From positions 1,562,673-1,626,672 of the forward strand of contig CM055109.1 in the NCBI GenBank assembly GCA_029204225.1: a stretch of 64,000 nucleotides of DNA, read 5' to 3'. The position numbers were made by a program, and so were the translations under genes. The notes beneath the pieces are model-generated. The model did not search any database. It was not told the origin of the DNA and saw nothing but the letters and a program-made list of their open reading frames with translations. Each line of letters opens with the position of its first letter. Position 1 is the stretch's first letter. Shown piece after piece: positions 25,533-63,382 of this stretch. The stretch comes from Diphasiastrum complanatum. Lineage: Eukaryota; Streptophyta; Lycopodiopsida; Lycopodiales; Lycopodiaceae.

Positions 25533-28500
25533 GTTTATCACAACGAGATGAATTACATTCAGATCAGTCTAGCGATGAAAACAGTACTCAAGTTAACAGA
25601 GTAAGTAATAAACATGCATGTGTTCTTGTTCATAAAAACTTTGTTATTATAAGTTAAAATATTGTGCTAAAGTGACATGTACTTGATTTTTGTTTCTCGT
25701 AGAAAAATTATTTGCAAAATAAAATATGGTGCACATGCCTCAAGTGTGATGGACAAAAGATACGTGAAAGACGCATTGTTGAAAATCATTTGTGGAAGTT
25801 TGGACGAAAAGAAAAAGGTCAGTCATCGAATTTGGAAGACGTTGAGGTTTGTTAATTTTATATGATTGTTTTTTATTATAATCTTCGTCAATCTATATAT
25901 GTCACTTATGAAATTTGTTTCATGTGTATAGCCAATACATCGAATGCCATTCCACGGAGTTGATCCATCCGTGTTTAGTTACAATCAACGTCAAGTTTTG
26001 ATAGACATGAGAAAACAAAGAATGAAACAAATTGAAGAGGCAAACACAATTGGATAAGAGAATAATCAACTTGATTCTAATGATTATGATGATGAGGTGC
26101 AACACGATGAAGCAATGCACAACATGTTTGAATCTTACTTTGAAACAAATGAGAATGATGATATGCATGCATCTTCTAATAAAAACGGAGATCACGAACA
26201 ATTTGAGATGGATGAAGATGAGATTCTATTGCGCAAGGAGGCAGACACTCCTCTATATCCTGGAGCATCCATTTCGAGACTAGCTATGTCAATTCTTATT
26301 CTAAACCTTCAAGCAACATACAAATGGAGTGATCGTAGCGTGACATCTTTATTTGGGAACTTAACGCATAACACAACTATTATACTTTATAGCATATTTA
26401 CATTAAGTTGATTTTTTTTTCTTTTCTAACAACTCACGTTGCTCTTTTTTTAGGTTGTTGCATCATACTTCCGAAAGAAAATGTGATACCTAAAACACGA
26501 AAAGAAGCACGAAAGATGATGACCGTGCTTGGAATGGATTACGACACAATACATGCATGTCCAGAAGACCATGTTCTATATAGAGCTGAGCATTCAAAAA
26601 AGCTTCAATGTCCAGTGTGTAACGCTTCACGTTTTCGAGATGACGTACAAGGGGATAAAGTGCCACAAAAAGTGTTACGACATTTTCCAATTATCCCACG
26701 ATTGCAACGTTTATTTCGATGTAAATCTTTGGCACAACTAATGGATTGGCATGTCAAAAATCGATCTACGGATGATGTGATGCGAGTACCAAGTGATTCA
26801 ACTGCATGGAAACAGATTGAAGACCAATGACCTGAGTTTAAAAACGAACCTCGTAATTTGAAATTTGGCCTTGCTATGGATGGTGTAAATCCTTTTAGCG
26901 TTCAAGCGTCAACTTGGTCCACATGGCTAGTTGTGCTCGTTAATTACAGCATACCTCTATGGTTGAGTATTAAAACGGGACACTTGTTATTGGCTTTATT
27001 GATTCCAGGAAAGTACAAGGCCAAGAACATGGATGTGTATCTTGCACCTTTGATCGATGAATTGTGCATTCTTTGGAATGGTATTCATGCTTACGACATC
27101 TCGAGACCTTTACAACAACAAAACTTCATTGTTCGTGGAATTCTAATGTGGATGATGCATGACTACCCCGGTTTAATCGAATGTTCAAGTATCTATATAA
27201 TGAATCTAATCTGTTTTAGGGTTTGACGTTTGAGTATATTTAACTAAGCTTATGTTTAATTTGGTTTATGAACTATGCAGGTTTAACCACATCGGGCTAC
27301 AATGCATGTTATATTTGTGGACCACTTTTGGAGGCTCGACATAGTACAAATATATTAAAAAAAATGGTGTACAAAAATCATTGCAAATACTTGCCGCCTG
27401 ATCATCCTTTTCAAAGGTTGAATAGGCGATTTTTTGGAGGGCGAGGAGATAATCCTCTAACTACACCACCACCCACACCCCCACGCATGGGAGTAGCAGA
27501 ATGGCATGGTGAATGGCTTAAACATCACGATGTTAATTCTTCATGGAATGAATCCATTGATGGTATGAAACGGTTGTCTATTTTTCATAAATTACCCTAT
27601 TGGAGGAATTTATTGATAAACCATCTATTGGATCCTATGCACATATTCAAAAACGTCGGTGAATCCTTATGGAACCACATCATTGGCATAAAAGACAACT
27701 TCGCAACTCGTAAAGATCTACAAGCGGCCGATGTAAAAAGACCCTATTGGATTCAATACACGGAAGGTGGAGATGAGATTCTACCTAGCGTGCCGTGGAT
27801 TCTTACAAAAGAGCAACTCTCATATGTTAAACATGTCATAAAACAAATGAGAACTCGAACAGGCTATGCACATTCTTTATGCAAGTCATTTATTAAAGAT
27901 GGTAAATTAAGTGGATTGAAATCACATTATTGGCATAAGATGTTGCAATTTATACTTCCACTTTCTATTCAAGGTCTCTTCAACGATACGTACGAAATAC
28001 GCTTTACAATTTGTCATCGATGATTAGGTTTGTATATCTTTTTAAACACTTGTATAAATATGTGATATTTCAATTTTGTTATGTGTTAAACAACCTAATG
28101 TACTATCAACCTTGCAAGTGGATTTCCTCAAAAGAAATAAAAATTTGTAAATTGAATTCCATGAAAATCCAAATGATTGAAATGATATGTTTGTTGGAAA
28201 GAGATTTTCCAACTTCCTTTTTGGATATACAAGTTCATCTTCTAGTGCATTTGATCAAAGAAGTATCAATTGCAGGACCTGTGCACACGAGATAGATGTT
28301 CTACCTTGAGCACTTTATGAAAGTTTTGAAGGGCTTTGTGAGACAAAAGGCAAGGCCAGGAGGTAGCATTGTTGGCTTGTACAGGAATCTTTGTTTTATA
28401 TCACCGAAATAATTTCACAATTGCATCCTGCAAGTCCAAAGATGTGGTGCGAAAAAAAAGATGAACGTGTTAAAGGTGAAGTACCACAAGGAAATGGTGT

Positions 28501-47611: not shown

Positions 47612-48235
47612 TCATCTTCTCAAGGTCTTTTTTAATGAGTCTAAATGATCTTTAGTTGACGAATAGACACAAAAGTCGTCCATAAAAATTTCTAGAAACT
47701 TACAAAAATTTTTTTGGAAAATGTTTGTCATCATACGTTGAAATGTGGTGGGTGCATTACAAAGACCAAATGGCATTTGCGTGTAAGCGTACGTCTCCCA
47801 ATCAGTGGTAAAAGTGGCCTTGTATCTATCTTCTACTTTAATAAGAACTTGATTGTAACCTGAGAAACCATCTAAAAAACTATAATGTTCATGACCAGCT
47901 ACTTGGTCAAGAATGGTATCTGTATAAGACAGAGGATGATAATCCTTTGCTGTAGCAGCAACATTTAGTTTCCTAAAATCTTGGCAGACTCTAATCTTAC
48001 TTGTTTTCTTCTTAGGTACTATGACTATTGGTGATACCCATTCACTACTTAGAACATGATATATGATACCCACTCTAAGGCATCTATCTAATTCGTCTTT
48101 TACTAACAAAGAATACTTCGGATTCAACCTGTATTGTCTCTGCCTAACATGTATTGCTCCATGAATGAGATCTATTCTATGTTCTCCCCATCTAACCGGT
48201 ATTCCTGTCAAATCATCCATCGACCAAGCAAACAC
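47612..48235 (-). pseudogene. gypsy-M reverse transcriptase
   Basis: A 207-codon open block holds the polymerase motifs of Ty3/gypsy: EWVSPIVIVPKKK, IRVCQDFRKLN, YSFLDGFSGYNQ (first catalytic aspartate), MPFGLCNAPTTFQR and IFMDDFCVYS (catalytic DD intact). It ends at a TGA (C to stop) after KKTLRR. Reverse transcriptase itself looks intact in this copy; the rest of pol does not. Confidence 0.9.
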
Positions 48236-53240: not shown

Positions 53241-53775
53241 GCTCTGATACCAATATAAGGGAAGCTCCCTAAGATCCTGCTTACAAAACAAGACACAATG
53301 GAAAACACACTACGGAGCAACCACCCAACCAAGTAGAAGCAACCAATCAACTCTAGAAGCTTCACCCCCAAGCCAAGGAACAAGAAGCATGAACGTAGAG
53401 TGAAACCCTGGCAATGAATCAATGATCACAATGAGGAGTAGGGCGAGTTTGGCCTCAATATATAGAGCCAAAAGTGACCTGGGCACATAGCCATGCATAG
53501 CCCTAAGTTTCCTATACATAGATTCAGCTAGAATAGAGTCCTAAGCATGGACCAACTATTCATAGAATTGTTATTGATAACTCTACACATGCATACACTG
53601 TCTCAAACCTTGTCTAAACTCCATTTAGTGTGTTCTGGGCCTCACAAGGATATTAGTTACTTTCAGGTCACATCCAGTATGACGTGGCATAACTAACAGC
53701 TTGATTTACTGGAGTACCGTGTATCCAAGACTAGGAGTATACTGAATCCTACTTACTGGTCATGGACATAACAAT
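53241..53775 (-). mobile_element. Second minus-strand LTR with copia primer site
   Basis: Read on the minus strand, 53252-53241 is TGGTATCAGAGC, a perfect copia primer site. To its right, where the LTR should lie, is about 0.5 kb containing a TATA box (CTATATATT on the minus strand near 53457-53465). The LTR edge is not a clean TG...CA, and the far end is cut or unrecognised near 53775. The open frames inside (53100-53519) are likely chance. This probably marks the 5' end of another non-autonomous or broken copia-type element. Confidence 0.45.
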
Positions 53776-53789
53776 GTACAAATCCTAGG

Positions 53790-54249
53790 AAAGTACTTCT
53801 TGGTGACAATAGTCAGGGAATTGCATAAAATTGATCGAATGCATCAAAGGAAAACTGGCAGAGGAATTTAAAATATTTGATCTCGGTGAGGCAAAAGTTT
53901 GCTTAGGACTGGAAATTGTAAGAAACAGAAAGGGCAGGACCTTGCATCTTGCACAAATGAAATACACACTAGAAGTAATAAAAGAATATGGAATGCAGAA
54001 CAACAAGGTAGTCACCACTCCTATGGAGGAAGGGACAATATTGACCAAAAATGACTGCCCTCAAACTGAAGAAGAAAAGGCAGAGATGGTAAGAATCCCA
54101 TATCACAATCTCATTGGAAGTCTTATGTATCTTACTTTCTATACCCGCCCTGACATTGCATTTGCAGTTTACTCGTTAAGTCAATTCTCAAAAAATCTCG
54201 GCAAAATGCATTGGAAATATGCAAAAAGGATTTTACAATACCTAAAGGG
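53790..54249 (+). pseudogene. copia-2 reverse transcriptase/RNase H, left half of a split gene
   Basis: The frame reads LAEEFKIFDLGEAKVCLGLE, IPYHNLIGSLMYLTFYTRPD and WKYAKRILQYLKG, the end of copia reverse transcriptase and the connection to RNase H. The YVDD region just upstream (53780-53815) is degraded and everything 5' of it is missing. At 54249 the gene is interrupted by the young LTR element. It continues in the same frame at 59778 once the element and one copy of the AAGGG duplication are discounted. Belongs to a different copia lineage than copia-1. Confidence 0.85.
54245..54249 (+). repeat. Target site duplication AAGGG (left)
   Basis: AAGGG directly precedes the left LTR and recurs directly after the right LTR at 59773-59777. 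Five bases is the usual duplication for LTR elements. The interrupted copia frame reads through correctly across one copy. Confidence 0.95.
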
Positions 54250-54896
54250 TGTGAAAAATACAGATCCTAAGTGGATCTAAACTCCAAGATCATTGGCTTG
54301 AATGCTTGCACTCCAAACTACATAAGCTAGGAATTGGCAACACATTCTATGCTACCTAGAATGCAAAGAACTTGATCAAAAAGCATTTATCACAAATGGA
54401 AACTTCCATAAACATCAAGTGCGGCCCAAAATAGCATTATACAGTCCATAATACATCAGCCTACCACTTTTGGAAAGCACCTAAGATCATACACACAAAG
54501 CTTGAACTCAATCACTACACAATGCCAACAATGGAAGGAGAACCCAATAGAAAAATCTCTCATTAAGCAAATGAATACAATGGATCTGCTCCAACCTGTT
54601 TCTCCACGGCCTACCTGCTATATATAGCTGAGAAAGATGACTCTCTCTCCTCTCTCTAGACCCTCCTTACCTAAAATATGCCCTATATAGGTAAAATTGG
54701 CATATATGTCCAAAATACATGAAAATGGACTCATTTCGAAGGTCTTGAAGTTTGACACTTCTTCATACTGAAAAAATACACTTACTAAAAATATCTAGAC
54801 CTGTTTCACACGTGTGAAAAGTCAGATCCTAAACTATGTGCCATTTTTAGCAATTTTGGCCTAAAACTAGACAAGGAAATGTTGACAATTTTCACA
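54250..54896 (-). repeat. 3' LTR of the young element
   Basis: 647 bp, TGTGAAAA...TTTTCACA, an 8-bp perfect terminal inversion. It has a TATATATAG box near 54618-54627 (read on the minus strand CTATATATA). Matches the other LTR with one difference. Confidence 0.96.
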
Positions 54897-54906
54897 CTCC
54901 CTCTTC
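54897..54906 (-). other. Polypurine tract
   Basis: On the minus strand GAAGAGGGAG, directly against the 3' LTR. This is the primer for second-strand synthesis. The ORF ends only 3 bp upstream, so coding sequence reaches the tract. Confidence 0.9.
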
Positions 54907-54909
54907 AAC

Positions 54910-57900
54910 TTAACTTGCTAGTTTTACAACACTACTTTGTTCCAACTTAAGAATGATCTCCATCATCAGAATAGATCTCTTCTCAAGGATCCTAATATGT
55001 ACAAAATAGGACACAACATAATTGATATAGATAATAGTGTCCATATAGGATGCTTCACTATTTCTTACATCAATTTTACATAGAATCATAAAAATGGTAC
55101 ATGTAAAAGAACATAGAATCTCAATTAATGAATTCCTCCATGTATCCATCTCTGGTTTCTCTGTAAAATAGCAGCAAACAAGTTGTAAATGAAAGTGATC
55201 AACAAGTGTTTGCATGCCTCCTCCACATTTCACTATACATATAGTGAATGCAACATGTATCTCCATGAATGAACTTCCATCACCACCTTGCCTTTGTAGA
55301 TCTTCAATCCATGAAAGCCTTTGAGTGAATGAATGCCAAAAAGATGTGTTCCCTACTCCATTTGAATGACCAAAACCTGAACTTGAAATACTTGAAGTAC
55401 CTCCACAAGATTTGCACACAACGCTTGATCCTACAATGTCAACAAGTTGCCAATTTGCCAACACTAGAATACTAGATCTTGAACTTTGTTCAAAAGAAAA
55501 CATATTGACCACTTCAATACCTTTCAAGATCTGAATGAATTCATGTACTTGATCATACAAACCAGCAATGATAACTATTCCATCTCCAAGATCCAAATTT
55601 GACAATTTCAACACATTGACATAACAATGTTCATACATGAGATTAGGCAAGTGAGGTAGAGTAAGAAGACACTTCCTTGCAGCTCCAAAGACCTTACTTG
55701 AACCTTCAAGAACCTGTAAAAACAGATCCAAAATGCCTTGACCATTTGTCTCTTCTTTGATGCTTTTCACTAGCTTCGAATTGCCACTTGTCTCTTGGTG
55801 TTGATGAAGCAATCCAAGATCAACCTCTTGATCTTCCAATAAGACATCAAAGATCTTGCATATGTGAACATCTTCAGATCTGAAACTCTGAAGATACTCC
55901 CTCTCAAACACATGATTAAGATCCCACAAGATCTCATCAATGCTCAAATTTGACCCTTCACTATAGTTAGTGAAAACAATGCCACCATCATAAACCAAAA
56001 GATAGATTCCAACATTTCCATTTAACATGAAGTAGAGTAGGTGAAGATGAGTATCAAACCTAATCAAAACAGCCCTCTTGAGTTCATAACAAACCTCAAT
56101 AAGCTCACCAATGATATCTCCCTTGCCTTGAAGAAGTTGCCACTTGAGTTGCTCCATGTAGTCTTCTTCAACCAACCTTTTGCCATCTTGACCATGAATG
56201 AACAATCCACCACAATCATAGAATGCTTTGAGTTGATGAAGAGATTTTAGATCCATGCTTTGGATCTTCCCAAGAACCACTCTTCCATTGCCCTTTCCTT
56301 CACAAGACTCCCTCTTAATGCTAGCACCACAAAAGTTAGAAACCTCCCTCTTGATAGTTGCACCATAAGAAGTAGAAGACTCTTGAATATTAGAAGCCAA
56401 GAAAAGAATCCTTAGTACCTTCAACATAAGAGTGATTGAAGTACTCTCTCTTTTCAAACATGAACTTCTACTCAATGATTTAGGTAATGAGTCATATGAT
56501 AATGATTCTTCCTCACTATCGTTCATAAAAACATCATTCAAAGTACATCCTACTTTGAACACTTCACATACTTCTCTTCCTTTTGACTTGTGATCTCCCT
56601 CACCAAGTCTCATGATAGAAACCTTTGATCTACTCTTTTTATGAAGAAATGTGACACCACTTGTTGCACAAATGACTTTATCACAAAAAGATGTAAAAGA
56701 ACCATTTCCTTCAAGCATGCTCAAAGCACCATCATCTTTTCCCACATGATTACATACATCAATATGAAAAGAATTAGAAGAACAACCATCTTCTTGCAAA
56801 GAATGACACTTAGCATCTCCATCTTTTTCCATATGAACAAACAAGTCATTAGCAACAATCACTTCCAAAGAAGAATCTTCATCAACTCCATTGATGAAGT
56901 TAGCTCCTTCCTTACCTTTTCCATTTTTGCACTTGCCATCTAGCACCATTGAAGAACCACCAAGCCTTGGAAGTCCATGAGTAGAAGAGTACAAACATGA
57001 TGCTAATTTAGCTCCACATGACTCCATATGACTAGTAGGTAACACTAGTGCATCTTCAAGATCCAATGGATCCAAAAAATTGACCATAGATTCACCAAAG
57101 CTTGCCAAGTTAGCACAACAATTATCATCTCCAAGAAGTACATTAGATCTCAACCTAGATCTAGCATTTTGTTTCTTATGGCATTCATTTGCAAAATGTC
57201 CTTTTATCCCACAATAAAAACATTTGAACTTGGACTTATCTTGCTTCCTACTTTGCAAAGAAGAAGAATGCTTTCCATGCTCCAAACTACCTTGCTTGGA
57301 CCACTTGCCTTTGAACTTGCCCTTTGTGAAAAGAGCTTCTTCATCTCCACCTTGTGTTGATGCACCACCACCTTTGGCTTGCAACCTATGCTCTTCAGCC
57401 ACCAAGATCTCTTGCAAGTCATTGACACTTGGCAAGGACTTTTGTATAGCAAAGCATTGTACAAGGTTAGAATGTTCATCAAGCAAACCATTCAACATGA
57501 CTTGAACTAGTTCCCCATCCTTTATGCTTTCATCTATGCATGCTAGATCATCATTCAAGGATTTAACATTCAAGACAAATGAATGTGCACTCTCTCCCTC
57601 TCTTTGACAACTTTGGAAGATTTGCCTTCTTAGGGTGAGAACCCTAGATGTGGATTTGGACTCATAGATCTTCTTCAAAGCATTCCATGCTTCACTTGAA
57701 GAAGTACATTTACCAACTTCTTTAAGAAGTTCATTGGTAACATTCATCTTTATGATATGTAAGGCTCTTTTAGCCCTTCTATCAAAATTTAGTTGCTCTT
57801 GAAGAATTAGAGGTCTTTCTTCAATTCCCACAACTATATCCATTAGCTCATTCAACTCTAGTAAAGACTCCATCCTCACTTTCCAAGTTGAATAGTTTGT

Positions 57901-58017
57901 AGAGTTTAACCTCTCTTTAGCTTCCAACATGATTCCACCATTGGATGTCATGATGCTAAAATCTTCTTGTGTCCTTAGGCTCTGTTCTAATGCACCTAGC
58001 ACTCTCCTTTCTCTCAA
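54910..58017 (-). CDS. gag: Gag-like protein with long novel C-terminal region (1035 aa)
   Basis: One uninterrupted frame fills the interior. Residues about 36-215 form a copia-type Gag/UBN2 region: LNSTNYSTWKVRMESLL, LKKIYESKSTSRVLTLRRQI, GESAHSFVLNVKSLNDDL and QVMLNGLLDEHSNLVQCF. Residues 215-262 are glycine- and lysine-rich. A single CCHC knuckle uses C266, C269, H274 and C279 (FKCFYCGIKGHFANECHKK) to bind RNA. Residues 280-1035 match nothing I know: no DSG protease, HHCC or DDE integrase, YVDD polymerase or RNase H motif is present. This part is cysteine- and serine-rich at first (to about 550), then more hydrophobic (LHLLYFMLNGNVGIYLLVYD, and TCTIFMILCKIDV near the end). The start was chosen as the first ATG; an ATG 22 codons on (MTSNGG) is equally plausible. 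It would assemble particles with a helper's enzymes. Confidence 0.9.
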   Translation of the reverse strand: MRERRVLGALEQSLRTQEDFSIMTSNGGIMLEAKERLNSTNYSTWKVRMESLLELNELMDIVVGIEERPLILQEQLNFDRRAKRALHIIKMNVTNELLKEVGKCTSSSEAWNALKKIYESKSTSRVLTLRRQIFQSCQREGESAHSFVLNVKSLNDDLACIDESIKDGELVQVMLNGLLDEHSNLVQCFAIQKSLPSVNDLQEILVAEEHRLQAKGGGASTQGGDEEALFTKGKFKGKWSKQGSLEHGKHSSSLQSRKQDKSKFKCFYCGIKGHFANECHKKQNARSRLRSNVLLGDDNCCANLASFGESMVNFLDPLDLEDALVLPTSHMESCGAKLASCLYSSTHGLPRLGGSSMVLDGKCKNGKGKEGANFINGVDEDSSLEVIVANDLFVHMEKDGDAKCHSLQEDGCSSNSFHIDVCNHVGKDDGALSMLEGNGSFTSFCDKVICATSGVTFLHKKSRSKVSIMRLGEGDHKSKGREVCEVFKVGCTLNDVFMNDSEEESLSYDSLPKSLSRSSCLKRESTSITLMLKVLRILFLASNIQESSTSYGATIKREVSNFCGASIKRESCEGKGNGRVVLGKIQSMDLKSLHQLKAFYDCGGLFIHGQDGKRLVEEDYMEQLKWQLLQGKGDIIGELIEVCYELKRAVLIRFDTHLHLLYFMLNGNVGIYLLVYDGGIVFTNYSEGSNLSIDEILWDLNHVFEREYLQSFRSEDVHICKIFDVLLEDQEVDLGLLHQHQETSGNSKLVKSIKEETNGQGILDLFLQVLEGSSKVFGAARKCLLTLPHLPNLMYEHCYVNVLKLSNLDLGDGIVIIAGLYDQVHEFIQILKGIEVVNMFSFEQSSRSSILVLANWQLVDIVGSSVVCKSCGGTSSISSSGFGHSNGVGNTSFWHSFTQRLSWIEDLQRQGGDGSSFMEIHVAFTICIVKCGGGMQTLVDHFHLQLVCCYFTEKPEMDTWRNSLIEILCSFTCTIFMILCKIDVRNSEASYMDTIIYINYVVSYFVHIRILEKRSILMMEIILKLEQSSVVKLAS

Positions 58018-59113
58018 TAAATGAAGAAGGAGAAGATCTTAAAAGATTTAGAACCCTAAATGACCTCTATCTTGAAACTATTTGGCTTTCAAGCATAGAA
58101 AGGAAGATTGAAACACATGCAACACTTTGCACACACTAAGAATGGATTACAAACTCAAACCAACCTGAACACACTCTTGCTTAAGCTCTCAAACTTTCCA
58201 GCAAGTGACCAAATCAAGTTATGGTGTGAAGAGTTACTTGCATTCTTAGAAAATACCCAAAACTAGGATGCCAAAATTACCTAGTAATGAACAAACTTGA
58301 TCAACATATGATCACCACACTAAGATATTGATTCAACCTGTAAAACCACATGTAAACCACACTTCTAAAAGTTTATAAACTCCAGCAAGTGATAAATACA
58401 AGATTTAGAGGTGAATGAATGAGCACACTTAGTGAATCACAAGACTAGCTTCACTATCTTGTCAAAATTTGGTGTTTAGATGTAGATCTAAGATCACTTC
58501 ACATGAGAATGTTCCTCAACCTGTTAAGAACCTGAAAACACACTTGCATAATGGTTAACACCTTCCAGCAAATGCTCCAATCAAATTACATAAGGAGAGT
58601 TACTTACATGCTCAACAAAGTACACCAAAATTTATGCCAAAATTGATGACAATCTTTACAATATGCTCTTCACAATGGAGCTTACAATATGTTCACCCAA
58701 AAAAGGGGATCTTTCATCCAAATGGGAGCTTTGCTCAGCCTTTAGGAGAATTACAACTCACTCAAAAGAGCATTTGTCATCCACTTAAGGAGAAGTTTCA
58801 TCCACTTAAGGAGAGTGTTCATCCAAGAATGGAGATTGTCAACAATAGGATTGAAAAGAACATTGTTAGTATTGAATATGCACAAGCCTCACAATCAACA
58901 AATGATTAAGTGTTATGATCTGATCCAAAATAGTTTCTTTTCAGCCTCTGATCTTCAATAGACCTGAAATATGCTTTTGATCCACAAGTTCAACTCACAA
59001 AACAAAGGTTAGTAAGATTTGATCAACAAAGCAATGCAAAATCATGCTAGAACTTGATCAAACATCCAAATATCACCAAAAATGGAATACTTACTATGAA
59101 TAGAAGCCAACCA
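58018..59113 (-). other. Leader of the young element with internal repeats
   Basis: Non-coding leader of 1.1 kb between the primer site and the Gag start. Three diverged units of about 175-180 bp begin near 58161, 58335 and 58516 (AACCTG, then CACACTTG/CACACTTC, then CCAGCAAGTGA or CCAGCAAATGC). A 21-bp tandem repeat (CATCCACTTAAGGAGA...) lies near 58779-58825. The plus-strand frame at 58634-58909 is antisense to this repeat and is not supported. Structured or repeated leaders in retroelements often carry packaging or dimerisation signals; that role is inferred. Confidence 0.6.
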
Positions 59114-59125
59114 GCTCTGATACCA
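59114..59125 (-). other. Primer-binding site (initiator tRNA-Met)
   Basis: TGGTATCAGAGC on the minus strand, directly against the LTR edge (CA|TGGTATCAGAGC). Perfect copia-type site. Confidence 0.97.
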
Positions 59126-59772
59126 TGTGAAAAATACAGATCCTAAGTGGATCTAAACTCCAAGATCATTGGCTTGAATGCTTGCACTCCAAACTACATA
59201 AGCTAGGAATTGGCAACACATTCTATGCTACCTAGAATGCAAAGAACTTGATCAAAAAGCATTTATCACAAATGGAAACTTCCATAAACATCAAGTGCGG
59301 CCCAAAATAGCATTATACAGTCCATAATACATCAGCCTACCACTTTTGGAAAGCACCTAAGATCATACACACAAAGCTTGAACTCAATCACTACACAATG
59401 CCAACAATGGAAGGAGAACCCAATAGAAAAATCTCTCATTAAGCAAATGAATACAATGGATCTGCTCCAACCTGTTTCTCCACGGCCTACCTGCTATATA
59501 TAGCTGAGAGAGATGACTCTCTCTCCTCTCTCTAGACCCTCCTTACCTAAAATATGCCCTATATAGGTAAAATTGGCATATATGTCCAAAATACATGAAA
59601 ATGGACTCATTTCGAAGGTCTTGAAGTTTGACACTTCTTCATACTGAAAAAATACACTTACTAAAAATATCTAGACCTGTTTCACACGTGTGAAAAGTCA
59701 GATCCTAAACTATGTGCCATTTTTAGCAATTTTGGCCTAAAACTAGACAAGGAAATGTTGACAATTTTCACA
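59126..59772 (-). repeat. 5' LTR of the young element
   Basis: 647 bp, same ends as the 3' LTR. It drives transcription leftward; a TATA box reads CTATATATA on the minus strand near 59494-59503. Immediately followed by the AAGGG duplication. Confidence 0.96.
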
Positions 59773-60283
59773 AAGGGCACTTCAGATTTTGGCATTACCT
59801 ATAGAGGCGACACATACTTCAATTTGCAAGCATATAGTGATGCCAGCTGGGCAAGCAATAAAGATTATTGCAAATTAGTCAGGAGGTTGTTTTCTGTTAT
59901 GCAAAGGGGCTATCAGTTGGATATGTAAGAAACAATCCATAATTGCTTAATCATCATGTGAGTCTAAGTACATAGCAGCATCCAAGGCCACCACCAAAGC
60001 TATATGGCTAAGAAGTATTCTTGGAGAGATTGGTGCAGAATAGGAAGGACCAATAGTGATTAAAATGGACAGTCAAAGTGCCATAAATCTATACAAGAAT
60101 CCTATTTTTCATTCTAGAACCAAGCATATTCCACTGAAGTATCATCATATCAAAGATATGATACAAAAATTAGAAATAATAGTTGAATTCATAAAGACAT
60201 TTGATATGACTGCTAATGTCTTCACAAAACCATTAGGTAGGAAATCATTTGAAAAACATAGGGAAATCTTGGGAGTAGGATGA
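59773..60283 (+). pseudogene. copia-2 RNase H, right half of the split gene
   Basis: It resumes the frame broken at 54249. LQAYSDASWASNKDYCK is followed by one frameshift and stops near 59880-59950, then ESKYIAASKATTKAIWLRS and, from 60056, IKMDSQSAINLYKNPIFH, RTKHIPLKYHHIKDMI and NVFTKPLGRKSFEKHREILG. This is the complete end of copia pol with its normal stop. The damage is modest, so copia-2 is younger than copia-1. Confidence 0.88.
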
Positions 60284-60293
60284 GGTTCTTGGT

Positions 60294-60304
60294 TCAAGAA
60301 AGGG
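60294..60304 (+). other. Polypurine tract of copia-2
   Basis: CAAGAAAGGG-type purine run directly before the TGTTAG start of the 3' LTR. Confidence 0.65.
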
Positions 60305-62324: not shown

Positions 62325-63382
62325 CCACAGTCCAATAGTGGGTCACCTTATGAGATGGGGTGAGGAGGTTGGAGGACCTACTAAATCTTGGATCAATTTC
62401 ATAGAATGCTATGAGAATAATGACGAAGAGAAAATGGAACTACCAACAACATTCGAGACGAGGGAAGTTTTGGGTGGAACCAGAGCAAGCATGACTGAGA
62501 GAATAGTTGATAAGAATGATTTTATAGAAATAGAAATTAGTAAAGGTAAAATTTTGAATTTATATAAATACCAATCAGACCAAGAGTGTGAAGAGTACAT
62601 ACTACTTCTTCAGAAATATCAAAATGTGTTTGCTTGGTCGATGGATGATTTGACAGGAATACCGGTTAAATGGGGAGAACATAGAATAGATCTCATTCAT
62701 GGAGCAATACCTGTTAGGCAGAGACAATACAGGCTGAACCCAAAGTATTCTTTGTTAGTAAAAGACGAATTAGATAGATGCCTTAGAGCGGGTATCATAT
62801 ATCCTGTTCTAAGTAGTGAATGGGTATCACCAATAGTCATAGTATCTAAGAAGAAAACAAGTAAGATTAGAGTTTGCCAAGACTTTAGAAAACTAAATGC
62901 TACTGCTATAGCAAAGGATTATCATCCTCTACCTTATACAGATACCATTCTTAACCAAGTAGCTAGTCATGAACATTATAGTTTTTTAGATGGTTTCTCA
63001 AGTTACAATCAAGTTTTTATTAAAGCAGAAGATAGATCCAAGATCACTTTTACCACTGATTGGGAGACGTACGCTTACACGCGAATGCCATTTGTTCTTT
63101 GTATTGCACCCACCACATTTCAACGTATGATGACAAACATTTTCCAAAAAAAATTAATGTAAGTTTTTAGAAATTTTTATGGACAACTTTTGTGTCTATT
63201 TGTCAACTAAAGATCATTTAGACGCATTAGAAAAGACCTTGAGAAGATGTCAAGAGACATCTCTTAAATTGCATCCAGCCAAGTGTTACTTCGGGATGAG
63301 GGAAGACATCCTGTTAGGCCATAAAATTTCGAAGGACAACATTCAAGCCGACATTGAAAAAGTAATGATTTTAGAATTATAA
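62311..63382 (+). pseudogene. gypsy-P reverse transcriptase
   Basis: A 283-codon block (62311-63162) carries the linker and polymerase motifs (EWVSPIVIVSKKK, IRVCQDFRKLN, YSFLDGFSSYNQ, TTFQRMMTNIF). After a frameshift near 63155 it continues at 63179-63382 with FMDNFCVYLS, CQETSLKLHPAKCYFG and LGHKISKDNIQADIEKV. The catalytic pair DD is DN here, so this enzyme is dead; gypsy-M keeps DD. FGLCNAP is degraded to FVLCIAP. Confidence 0.88.

What the first reader, a model, noticed from the sequence alone, without database searches (positions are those of the whole stretch)
54250..59772. Intact, very young Gag-only LTR retrotransposon with a large unknown C-terminal domain
Everything needed for retrotransposition in trans is present: 647-bp LTRs with one difference, primer site, polypurine tract, AAGGG duplication and an unbroken 1035-codon ORF. 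Every other element nearby is decayed. The ORF has Gag and one CCHC knuckle but no protease, integrase, reverse transcriptase or RNase H. It carries some 750 residues I cannot place. TR-GAG elements in plants are known as gag-only; a Gag fused to so long an unknown region, kept open up to the polypurine tract, may be a new variant or a captured gene.
Basis: partly seen in the sequence, partly recalled or inferred. Interest (0 to 1): 0.85.

Follow-up and report, generated by a model that had tools for sequence, protein, structure and literature searches.

The report
Semi-autonomous Copia retrotransposon with dead-RT tail
This is a very young plant jumping gene that makes its own shell protein, apparently borrows its enzymes from a full-length relative with which it swaps pieces, and carries a 750-codon tail that mostly stays readable although its protein content hardly seems to matter.

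Summary
The element is real and intact: minus strand, 647-bp LTRs with one difference, AAGGG duplication, primer site, polypurine tract, one ORF (1013 codons from ATG) with Copia Gag and one CCHC knuckle. It belongs to a recent burst: 62 of 62 scored genomic matches to its tail are near-identical and stop-free (the ranking favours such copies). Its likely enzyme source is a 1322-codon Gag-PR-INT-RT Copia family in the same genome. The two recombine like retroviruses: downstream LTR part plus leader ~99% shared, upstream LTR part ~23% different, and one tail (X) behind either of two Gags. X is not pol-free: residues 579-683 are a reverse-transcriptase remnant (31% identity, 0 of 1000 shuffles as good) with catalytic YVDD lost. 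The rest has no known relative. Gag is under purifying selection; X amino acids drift nearly neutrally (omega 0.6-0.85). Yet no stop is fixed in X (4.75 expected, P 0.009), though two older copies share a frameshift. A third family fuses X's second half in frame to the partner's Gag-PR-INT. Best reading: a semi-autonomous (TR-GAG-like) Copia element mobilised in trans. That the frame is kept for translation itself is inferred and unproven. New variant of a known kind.

The parts
59126..59772 (-). 5' LTR (TG...CA)
   Evidence: 647 bp, 1 mismatch to the other LTR
54250..54896 (-). 3' LTR
54245..54249 (.). target-site duplication AAGGG, left copy
59773..59777 (.). target-site duplication AAGGG, right copy
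59495..59502 (-). TATA-like box in the 5' LTR (start of transcription about 30 bases downstream is inferred)
   Evidence: sequence
59114..59125 (-). primer binding site TGGTATCAGAGC (initiator-tRNA-Met type, label recalled)
57952..59113 (-). untranslated leader; up to about element position 1650 (window about 58120) nearly identical to the autonomous partner
   Evidence: 29 upstream ATGs between the presumed TSS and the main ATG
54910..57951 (-). single ORF Gag-X, 1013 codons
57373..57873 (-). Copia Gag domain (Retrotran_gag_2, residues 27-193), 'gag B' allele
57181..57225 (-). CCHC zinc knuckle (residues 243-257); the Gag/X switch point lies here
54913..57177 (-). X region (residues 259-1013), unknown apart from the RT remnant
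55903..56217 (-). dead reverse-transcriptase remnant (residues 579-683): first-Asp region and EED-YMEQ kept, YVDD replaced by YDGG (motif names recalled)
54897..54906 (-). polypurine tract GAAGAGGGAG

Best explanation
A semi-autonomous Copia LTR retrotransposon. SHOWN by sequence: it encodes its own Gag; a Gag-PR-INT-RT Copia family with identical or near-identical LTR pairs is present in the same genome; the PBS and polypurine tract are shared; leader and downstream LTR part are nearly identical; young copies of both are numerous; the recombination boundaries are of the kind reverse transcription makes. INFERRED: both RNAs are packaged into one particle built from Gag A and Gag B; the partner supplies protease, integrase, reverse transcriptase and RNase H; template switches during reverse transcription keep exchanging the 5' half (downstream LTR part, leader, gag) while each family keeps its own 3' half (X or pol, polypurine tract, U3). 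X is a former coding region that includes a dead RT segment; it is no longer, or hardly, held to its amino-acid sequence. INFERRED and less sure: the active lineages keep X open because the RNA must be translated to near its 3' end, most simply so that a stop after Gag does not leave a >2.3-kb 3' UTR that would mark the RNA for nonsense-mediated decay.
For: Partner: 4 of 4 fetched loci of the 85-86% LTR group (L013, L014, L017, L018) have 1322-codon ORFs; Pfam finds Gag, Pol_BBD, gag_pre-integrs, rve and RVT_2 in L013 (Pol_BBD taken as protease-like; no RNase H family was listed). LTR pairs: A16 identical, A10 no substitution but 9 gap columns, A23 one change. 57 of 91 scored copies have exactly a 1322-codon frame (counted). 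Exchange: window copy vs A16, LTR positions 1-400 differ 12-44% per 50 bases (91 of 397), 400-1650 by 0-2 per 50 (11 of 1250), gag about 22%; sister C3's gag differs by 2 of 950. Of 31 copies (window's own and 3 with broken gag included) 19 carry gag A, 12 gag B. Burst: 62 of 62 scored X matches about 100% identical without stops, 58 of 62 with a frame of at least 1035 codons (hand count). RT remnant: 37.4 bits, 0 of 1000 shuffles as good (max 28.1); z 5.7-9.9 with three matrices. Selection, 9 older copies vs L021: gag fixed N/S 3.5/8.5 vs singletons 72.5/26.5, p 0.008; X 86.5/27.5 vs 145.5/45.5, p 1.0; with C3 as reference 2/9 and 88.5/26.5 (p 0.0006 and 1.0). Frame: 114 substitutions in unanimous codons of X, 4.75 stops expected, 0 counted, P 0.009. 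Fixed indels in X: 4 of 4 multiples of three. Window type (C3) vs the 1347-codon family, X half: omega 0.62, 5.0 stops expected, 0 seen, P 0.007.
Against: No expression, particle or transposition data. With all 11 older copies the stop test is marginal (64 substitutions, 3.0 expected, 0 counted, P 0.05). Ten of the 11 were chosen by me partly for long frames, which favours openness, and the window family was noticed because it is open. Two older copies on different contigs (L050, L054; 5.5% apart) share an 8-base frameshifting deletion in X, and several rows at different places share frame length and stop (501 codons with one TGA at C11:1204664, C3:14658001, C11:1466454): lineages with a broken X may have spread, unless these are duplicated segments. 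The in-frame indel excess is weak (4 of 4 vs 6 of 15, p 0.09). Omega of window type vs 1347 type has a bootstrap interval of 0.42-1.00, so weak protein constraint is not excluded. Against RNA-decay escape: 29 upstream ATGs in the leader, and a 3' UTR already over about 300 bases because of U3.
Confidence: 0.8

Rival explanations
1. On X only: X is a functional accessory protein (as a Gag-X fusion or cleaved product) under weak constraint, for example a dead-RT decoy or packaging helper.
For: Frame open in three lineages; codon usage of residues 268-599 as gene-like as Gag (0.41 vs 0.40 bits per codon, other forward frames 0.04 and below); omega 0.52-0.57 in the RT-remnant part.
Against: Fixed and private replacements have the same N/S; the 288-580 part has omega about 1; no family match.
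Confidence: 0.28
2. On X only: X is passive filler, a decayed pol or patchwork; its open frame is recency or chance.
For: Nearly neutral replacements; dead RT inside; stop test marginal with all 11 copies, P 0.05; shared 8-base frameshift in L050 and L054.
Against: 4.75 (9 copies) or 5.0 (1347 family) stops expected with none seen; all 4 fixed indels in frame; frame open in window-type and 1347-codon families.
Confidence: 0.25
3. On X only: X is a captured host gene carried as a passenger or new function.
For: Gene-like codon usage; no match to the partner's pol outside the RT remnant.
Against: No Pfam, NCBIfam, PHROG or PDB match; RT remnant inside it. Genome searches return only the best-scoring element copies, so a single host gene would be hidden.
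Confidence: 0.08
4. The element is autonomous with an unrecognised pol.
For: Long ORF to the polypurine tract.
Against: No protease or integrase match; RT catalytic YVDD lost; Gag knuckle joined directly to X.
Confidence: 0.01

Closest known systems
TR-GAG elements (Terminal Repeat with GAG domain); rule as printed in the Inpactor paper PMC6022998 (passages seen)
   Same: LTRs, PBS, PPT, only a Gag domain recognised; the older relatives have Gag plus a protease-like domain, also inside that rule
   Different: Fused in frame to a 750-codon X with a dead RT; likely partner and gag-exchange recombinants identified. The founding TR-GAG paper was not held under the DOI I tried, so its size limits were not checked
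RLG_Sabrina_SA / RLG_WHAM with partner RLG_Wilma, wheat (PMC9744471; sections 2.6, 2.7, 3.2 read)
   Same: Semi-autonomous, own Gag (with protease), RT and INT from a partner, very high copy number
   Different: Those are Gypsy and share only a few motifs with the partner; ours is Copia and keeps high identity and recent recombination with its partner
RLG_Quinta with RLG_Cereba, einkorn wheat (PMC11302176, abstract seen)
   Same: Non-autonomous member contributes Gag, partner the rest
   Different: Gypsy, centromere-targeted; no X tail mentioned in the abstract
Recombining family Onsen (PMC5668417, abstract and two passages seen) and LTR swapping in soybean (Du et al. 2010, reference entry only)
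   Same: Retrovirus-like recombination in bursts; [quoted passage not shown]
   Different: Here the exchange crosses from autonomous to semi-autonomous and moves gag as a cassette
Additional ORFs of plant LTR retrotransposons (PMC7264820, abstract and passages)
   Same: Unknown coding region before the 3' LTR, present in many copies
   Different: Those accompany gag-pol, mostly between pol and the 3' LTR; X is fused to Gag in the place of pol

Membership tests
Ty1/Copia superfamily | Copia-type Gag | tested here: met
   Retrotran_gag_2 E 4e-22
Ty1/Copia superfamily | PR-INT-RT-RH order in pol | tested here: not met
   Absent in this element; RT remnant only. The partner shows Pol_BBD, integrase, RT in that order; RNase H not listed by Pfam
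TR-GAG | Only Gag (or Gag plus protease) domain recognised, between LTRs | tested here: met
   rule
TR-GAG | Size limits and other criteria of the founding paper | not tested
   Paper not held
LARD | No coding domain in the internal region | tested here: not met
   Intact Gag; rule
BARE-2-like | Gag disrupted, other genes intact (as described) | tested here: not met
   The reverse: Gag intact, pol lost
Semi-autonomous LTR retrotransposon | Conserved own Gag plus a young autonomous partner with shared cis signals | tested here: met
Semi-autonomous LTR retrotransposon | Mobilisation in trans by the partner | not testable with these tools
   Needs expression and particle data; the recombinants imply co-packaging

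The most novel reading that the evidence does not exclude
X is an open reading frame selected for being translatable, not for what it encodes: the element must be read through to the polypurine tract for its RNA to survive or be packaged in cis, so stops and frameshifts are purged in the lasting lineages while amino acids drift. The in-frame reuse of X behind two different Gag alleles and behind Gag-PR-INT would be the natural experiment that shows it.
Probability: 0.32. Interest if true: 0.82.

Novelty: new variant of a known kind. Interest (0 to 1): 0.53.

Why it matters
It shows, within one genome and at very low divergence, a three-tier recombining system: autonomous Gag-Pol, semi-autonomous Gag-X, and chimeric Gag-PR-INT-X. 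Gag moves between them as a cassette, much as in recombining retroviruses. If the X frame is really kept for translation alone, it would explain why some non-autonomous retrotransposons carry long 'unknown' ORFs, and would warn that an open frame is no proof of a functional protein.

Tried and rejected
Rejected: autonomous element with hidden pol; chance ORF; host gene (no support, not excluded). X against the partner's pol outside the RT remnant: no signal with three matrices. No match to X in PDB sequences, NCBIfam, PHROGs or viral contigs (close relatives only); no Rfam match in the element. Polymorphism within the window family is useless for X because copies were ranked by X identity (23 S, 4 N private). 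The origin of gag B was not found or specifically searched. No plant collection other than this genome was available to me, so distribution in other species is unknown. Corrected on re-check: an earlier column-wise count (162 substitutions, 7.05 stops expected, P 0.0009; all 11: 109, 4.95, P 0.007) did not itself count observed stops and used C3, which has 6 private changes in X; the codon-wise count with L021 replaces it. For that reason, and for the frameshift shared by L050 and L054, I lowered the novel case from 0.38 to 0.32, the best explanation from 0.82 to 0.80 and the interest from 0.55 to 0.53, and raised the filler rival from 0.20 to 0.25.
Full report
OBSERVATION. The element spans 54250-59772 on the minus strand. 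LTRs are 647 bp with one mismatch (K2P 0.0015). AAGGG flanks both ends, and the joined flanks give a Copia RT/RNase H-like frame, recognised by eye. A PBS of initiator-tRNA type (label recalled) and a polypurine tract are in place. At a recalled rate of 1.3e-8 per site and year one change would mean some tens of thousands of years; the right rate for this plant is unknown. The ORF is 54910-57951, 1013 codons, with Copia Gag and a CCHC knuckle.

COPIES. The genome has 1.74 Gb. A protein search with residues 288-1013 gave 18,780 first-look candidates, of which the best 62 were scored: all about 100% identical, none with a stop, 58 of 62 with a frame of at least 1035 codons (hand count). The ranking favours intact X but does not look at gag. 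Of the 30 cut out (the window's own copy among them), 27 have Gag-X unbroken and 3 (L022, L031, L044) are broken in gag. Two gag alleles occur behind one X: of 31 copies (these 30 plus C5), 19 have gag A (3 of them the broken ones) and 12 gag B. This is a ranked, not a random, sample.

PARTNER. An LTR search (40 of 108 candidates scored) gave 3 near-identical rows, one of them the window's own, and 37 at 85-86%. All 4 loci of the latter group that I fetched hold a 1322-codon ORF, with Gag, Pol_BBD, gag_pre-integrase, rve and RVT_2 in L013; RNase H was not listed and is inferred from length. LTR pairs: A16 identical, A10 no substitution but 9 gap columns, A23 one change. A16, A10 and A23 have exact 5-bp duplications (ACAAT, CCTCG, TAATT); sister C3 shows only 4 matching bases. 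Of 91 scored matches to the integrase region, 57 are in a frame of exactly 1322 codons and 2 in 1347 (counted).

MOSAIC. Window copy against partner A16, in element coordinates: 1-400 differs by 91 of 397 (6 to 22 per 50 bases), 400-1650 by 11 of 1250, 1650-1700 by 5 of 50, 1700-2550 by about 22%, then a nearly identical stretch at the knuckle (4 of 50), then X without alignable similarity. Sister C3 has the same U3-like part and leader, but its gag differs from the partner's by only 2 of 950; the switch is at the knuckle. Both LTRs of the window copy carry the same boundary, as expected if the 5' end of one RNA and the 3' end of another were combined in reverse transcription. The boundary lies near 410, some 110 bases downstream of the start expected from the TATA box at 271, so it would fall within R or U5; an early strand transfer is inferred, not proven.

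X. No Pfam, NCBIfam, PHROG or PDB match, and no Rfam match in the element. Against the partner's pol, residues 579-683 match RT positions 910-1021 at 31% identity, 37.4 bits; 0 of 1000 local shuffles reach the real score (max 28.1). It is the only segment with signal under BLOSUM45, BLOSUM62 and PAM250. The alignment keeps the first-Asp region and EED-YMEQ and replaces YVDD by YDGG (motif names recalled). X has gene-like codon use: 0.41 bits per codon in residues 268-599, 0.21 in 690-1030 (numbering of C3), other forward frames 0.04 and below, leader negative.

OLDER RELATIVES. N5 and L050-L059 have Gag, a protease-like stretch (Pol_BBD E 6e-8 in N5) and X; N5's LTRs differ by 0.046. Window-type elements lack that stretch; the difference is 579 bp, in frame, in 7 of 11 and of other lengths in 4. 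L050-L059 are 10 of the 126 rows, chosen partly for long frames.

SELECTION. Pairwise, window copy vs N5: gag omega 0.15, X 0.75 (1.02, 0.57, 0.61 in three parts). Fixed against private changes, 9 older copies (L056 and L059 dropped for poor alignment), reference L021: gag 3.5 N/8.5 S fixed vs 72.5/26.5 private, p 0.008; X 86.5/27.5 vs 145.5/45.5, p 1.0, omega of fixed changes 0.80. All 11: gag 1/3 vs 142/40, p 0.04; X 47/17 vs 354.6/117.4, p 0.76, omega 0.67. With C3 as reference the picture is the same; for the window's gag B, fixed changes are 38 N/42 S. Gag A is nearly the partner's gag, so the gag test covers that lineage. So Gag is conserved and X amino acids are not, or hardly.

FRAME. 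In unanimous codons of X, 114 substitutions, 4.75 stops expected, 0 counted (P 0.009); with all 11, 64, 3.0, 0 (P 0.05). Fixed indels in X are 4 of 4 in frame; private ones 6 of 15 (L056 and L059 dropped, hand tally), p 0.09. Against: L050 and L054, on different contigs and 5.5% apart, share an 8-base frameshifting deletion in X, and rows at different places share frame length and stop. Some X-broken lineages may have spread. My choice of copies lowers stop counts (also among private changes) but should not change N/S.

THIRD FAMILY. A search with the older X half listed 96 matches, 27 of them matching query 10-440 at 92%, 19 of these in a 1347- or 1348-codon frame (hand count). At two loci on C1 the partner's integrase region and this X lie exactly 180 bases apart in 1347-codon frames (1399605-1401005 with 1401186; 97575152-97576552 with 97576733). 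The fetched 945 bases (L060) begin LEEDIYMEQ as in the partner's RT and continue as X. So Gag-PR-INT and the first part of RT are joined in frame to the second half of X. Of 126 scored matches at 98-100%, 76 are in a clean 1347-codon frame and 3 more contain a stop (counted). Against window type (C3) its X half has omega 0.62 (bootstrap 0.42-1.00), 101 substitutions, 5.0 stops expected and none seen (P 0.007). For loci other than the two on C1, frame length is the evidence.

HOW IT WORKS. Shown: anatomy, partner, shared cis signals, recombination pattern, Gag constraint, X drift. Inferred: co-packaging, enzymes in trans, template switching. Least sure: whether and why the frame is kept. Plants degrade RNAs with 3' UTRs above 300-350 nt (PMC4417159, passages seen); a stop after Gag would leave more than 2.3 kb. 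Window type stops 13 bases before the LTR, and the partner's frame ends within the first bases of its LTR. Against this, 29 upstream ATGs in the leader. A weakly constrained protein and passive filler remain serious rivals.

KNOWN. Semi-autonomous Gag-only or Gag-protease Gypsy families with partners are described in wheat (PMC9744471, sections read; PMC11302176, abstract), recombination of an LTR family in bursts in Arabidopsis (PMC5668417, abstract). TR-GAG is the formal class (PMC6022998, passages). My ten literature searches showed in their listings no Copia element with Gag fused to a dead-RT tail and no claim of a frame kept without content; the library lacks most subscription papers.

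Noticed in passing
L010:602-7117 (G000:C5 about 48.10 Mb): A window-type copy and an older Gag-PR-X relative stand head to tail with 9 bases between their LTRs.
   Followed up: partly
G000:C12:1664619 and 1670487; G000:C19:19455866 and 19461734: Two pairs of the 1347-codon family lie exactly 5868 bases apart on one strand, which suggests tandem elements sharing an LTR.
   Followed up: no
L050 and L054, X about residue 849 (C3 numbering): Two older copies on different contigs share an 8-base deletion that breaks the X frame although they differ by 5.5%.
   Followed up: partly
window 57952-59470: The leader has 29 upstream ATGs and several GTAAGT-like sites, which hints at a spliced leader intron.
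   Followed up: no
window 57225-57951: A second Gag allele (gag B, about 22% different in DNA) of unknown source; no autonomous element with it was specifically searched.
   Followed up: partly
window 27268-28023: CACTA-type transposase fragment (Transposase_21, E 1.6e-5, below Pfam's cut-off; CACTA label recalled).
   Followed up: no
window 47612-48220 (-) and 62350-63162 (+): Two similar RT fragments on opposite strands (RVT_1); Gypsy-type by recall.
   Followed up: no
window 53700-54249 and 59778-60300: The insertion target looks like the RT/RNase H region of another, decayed Copia element.
   Followed up: partly
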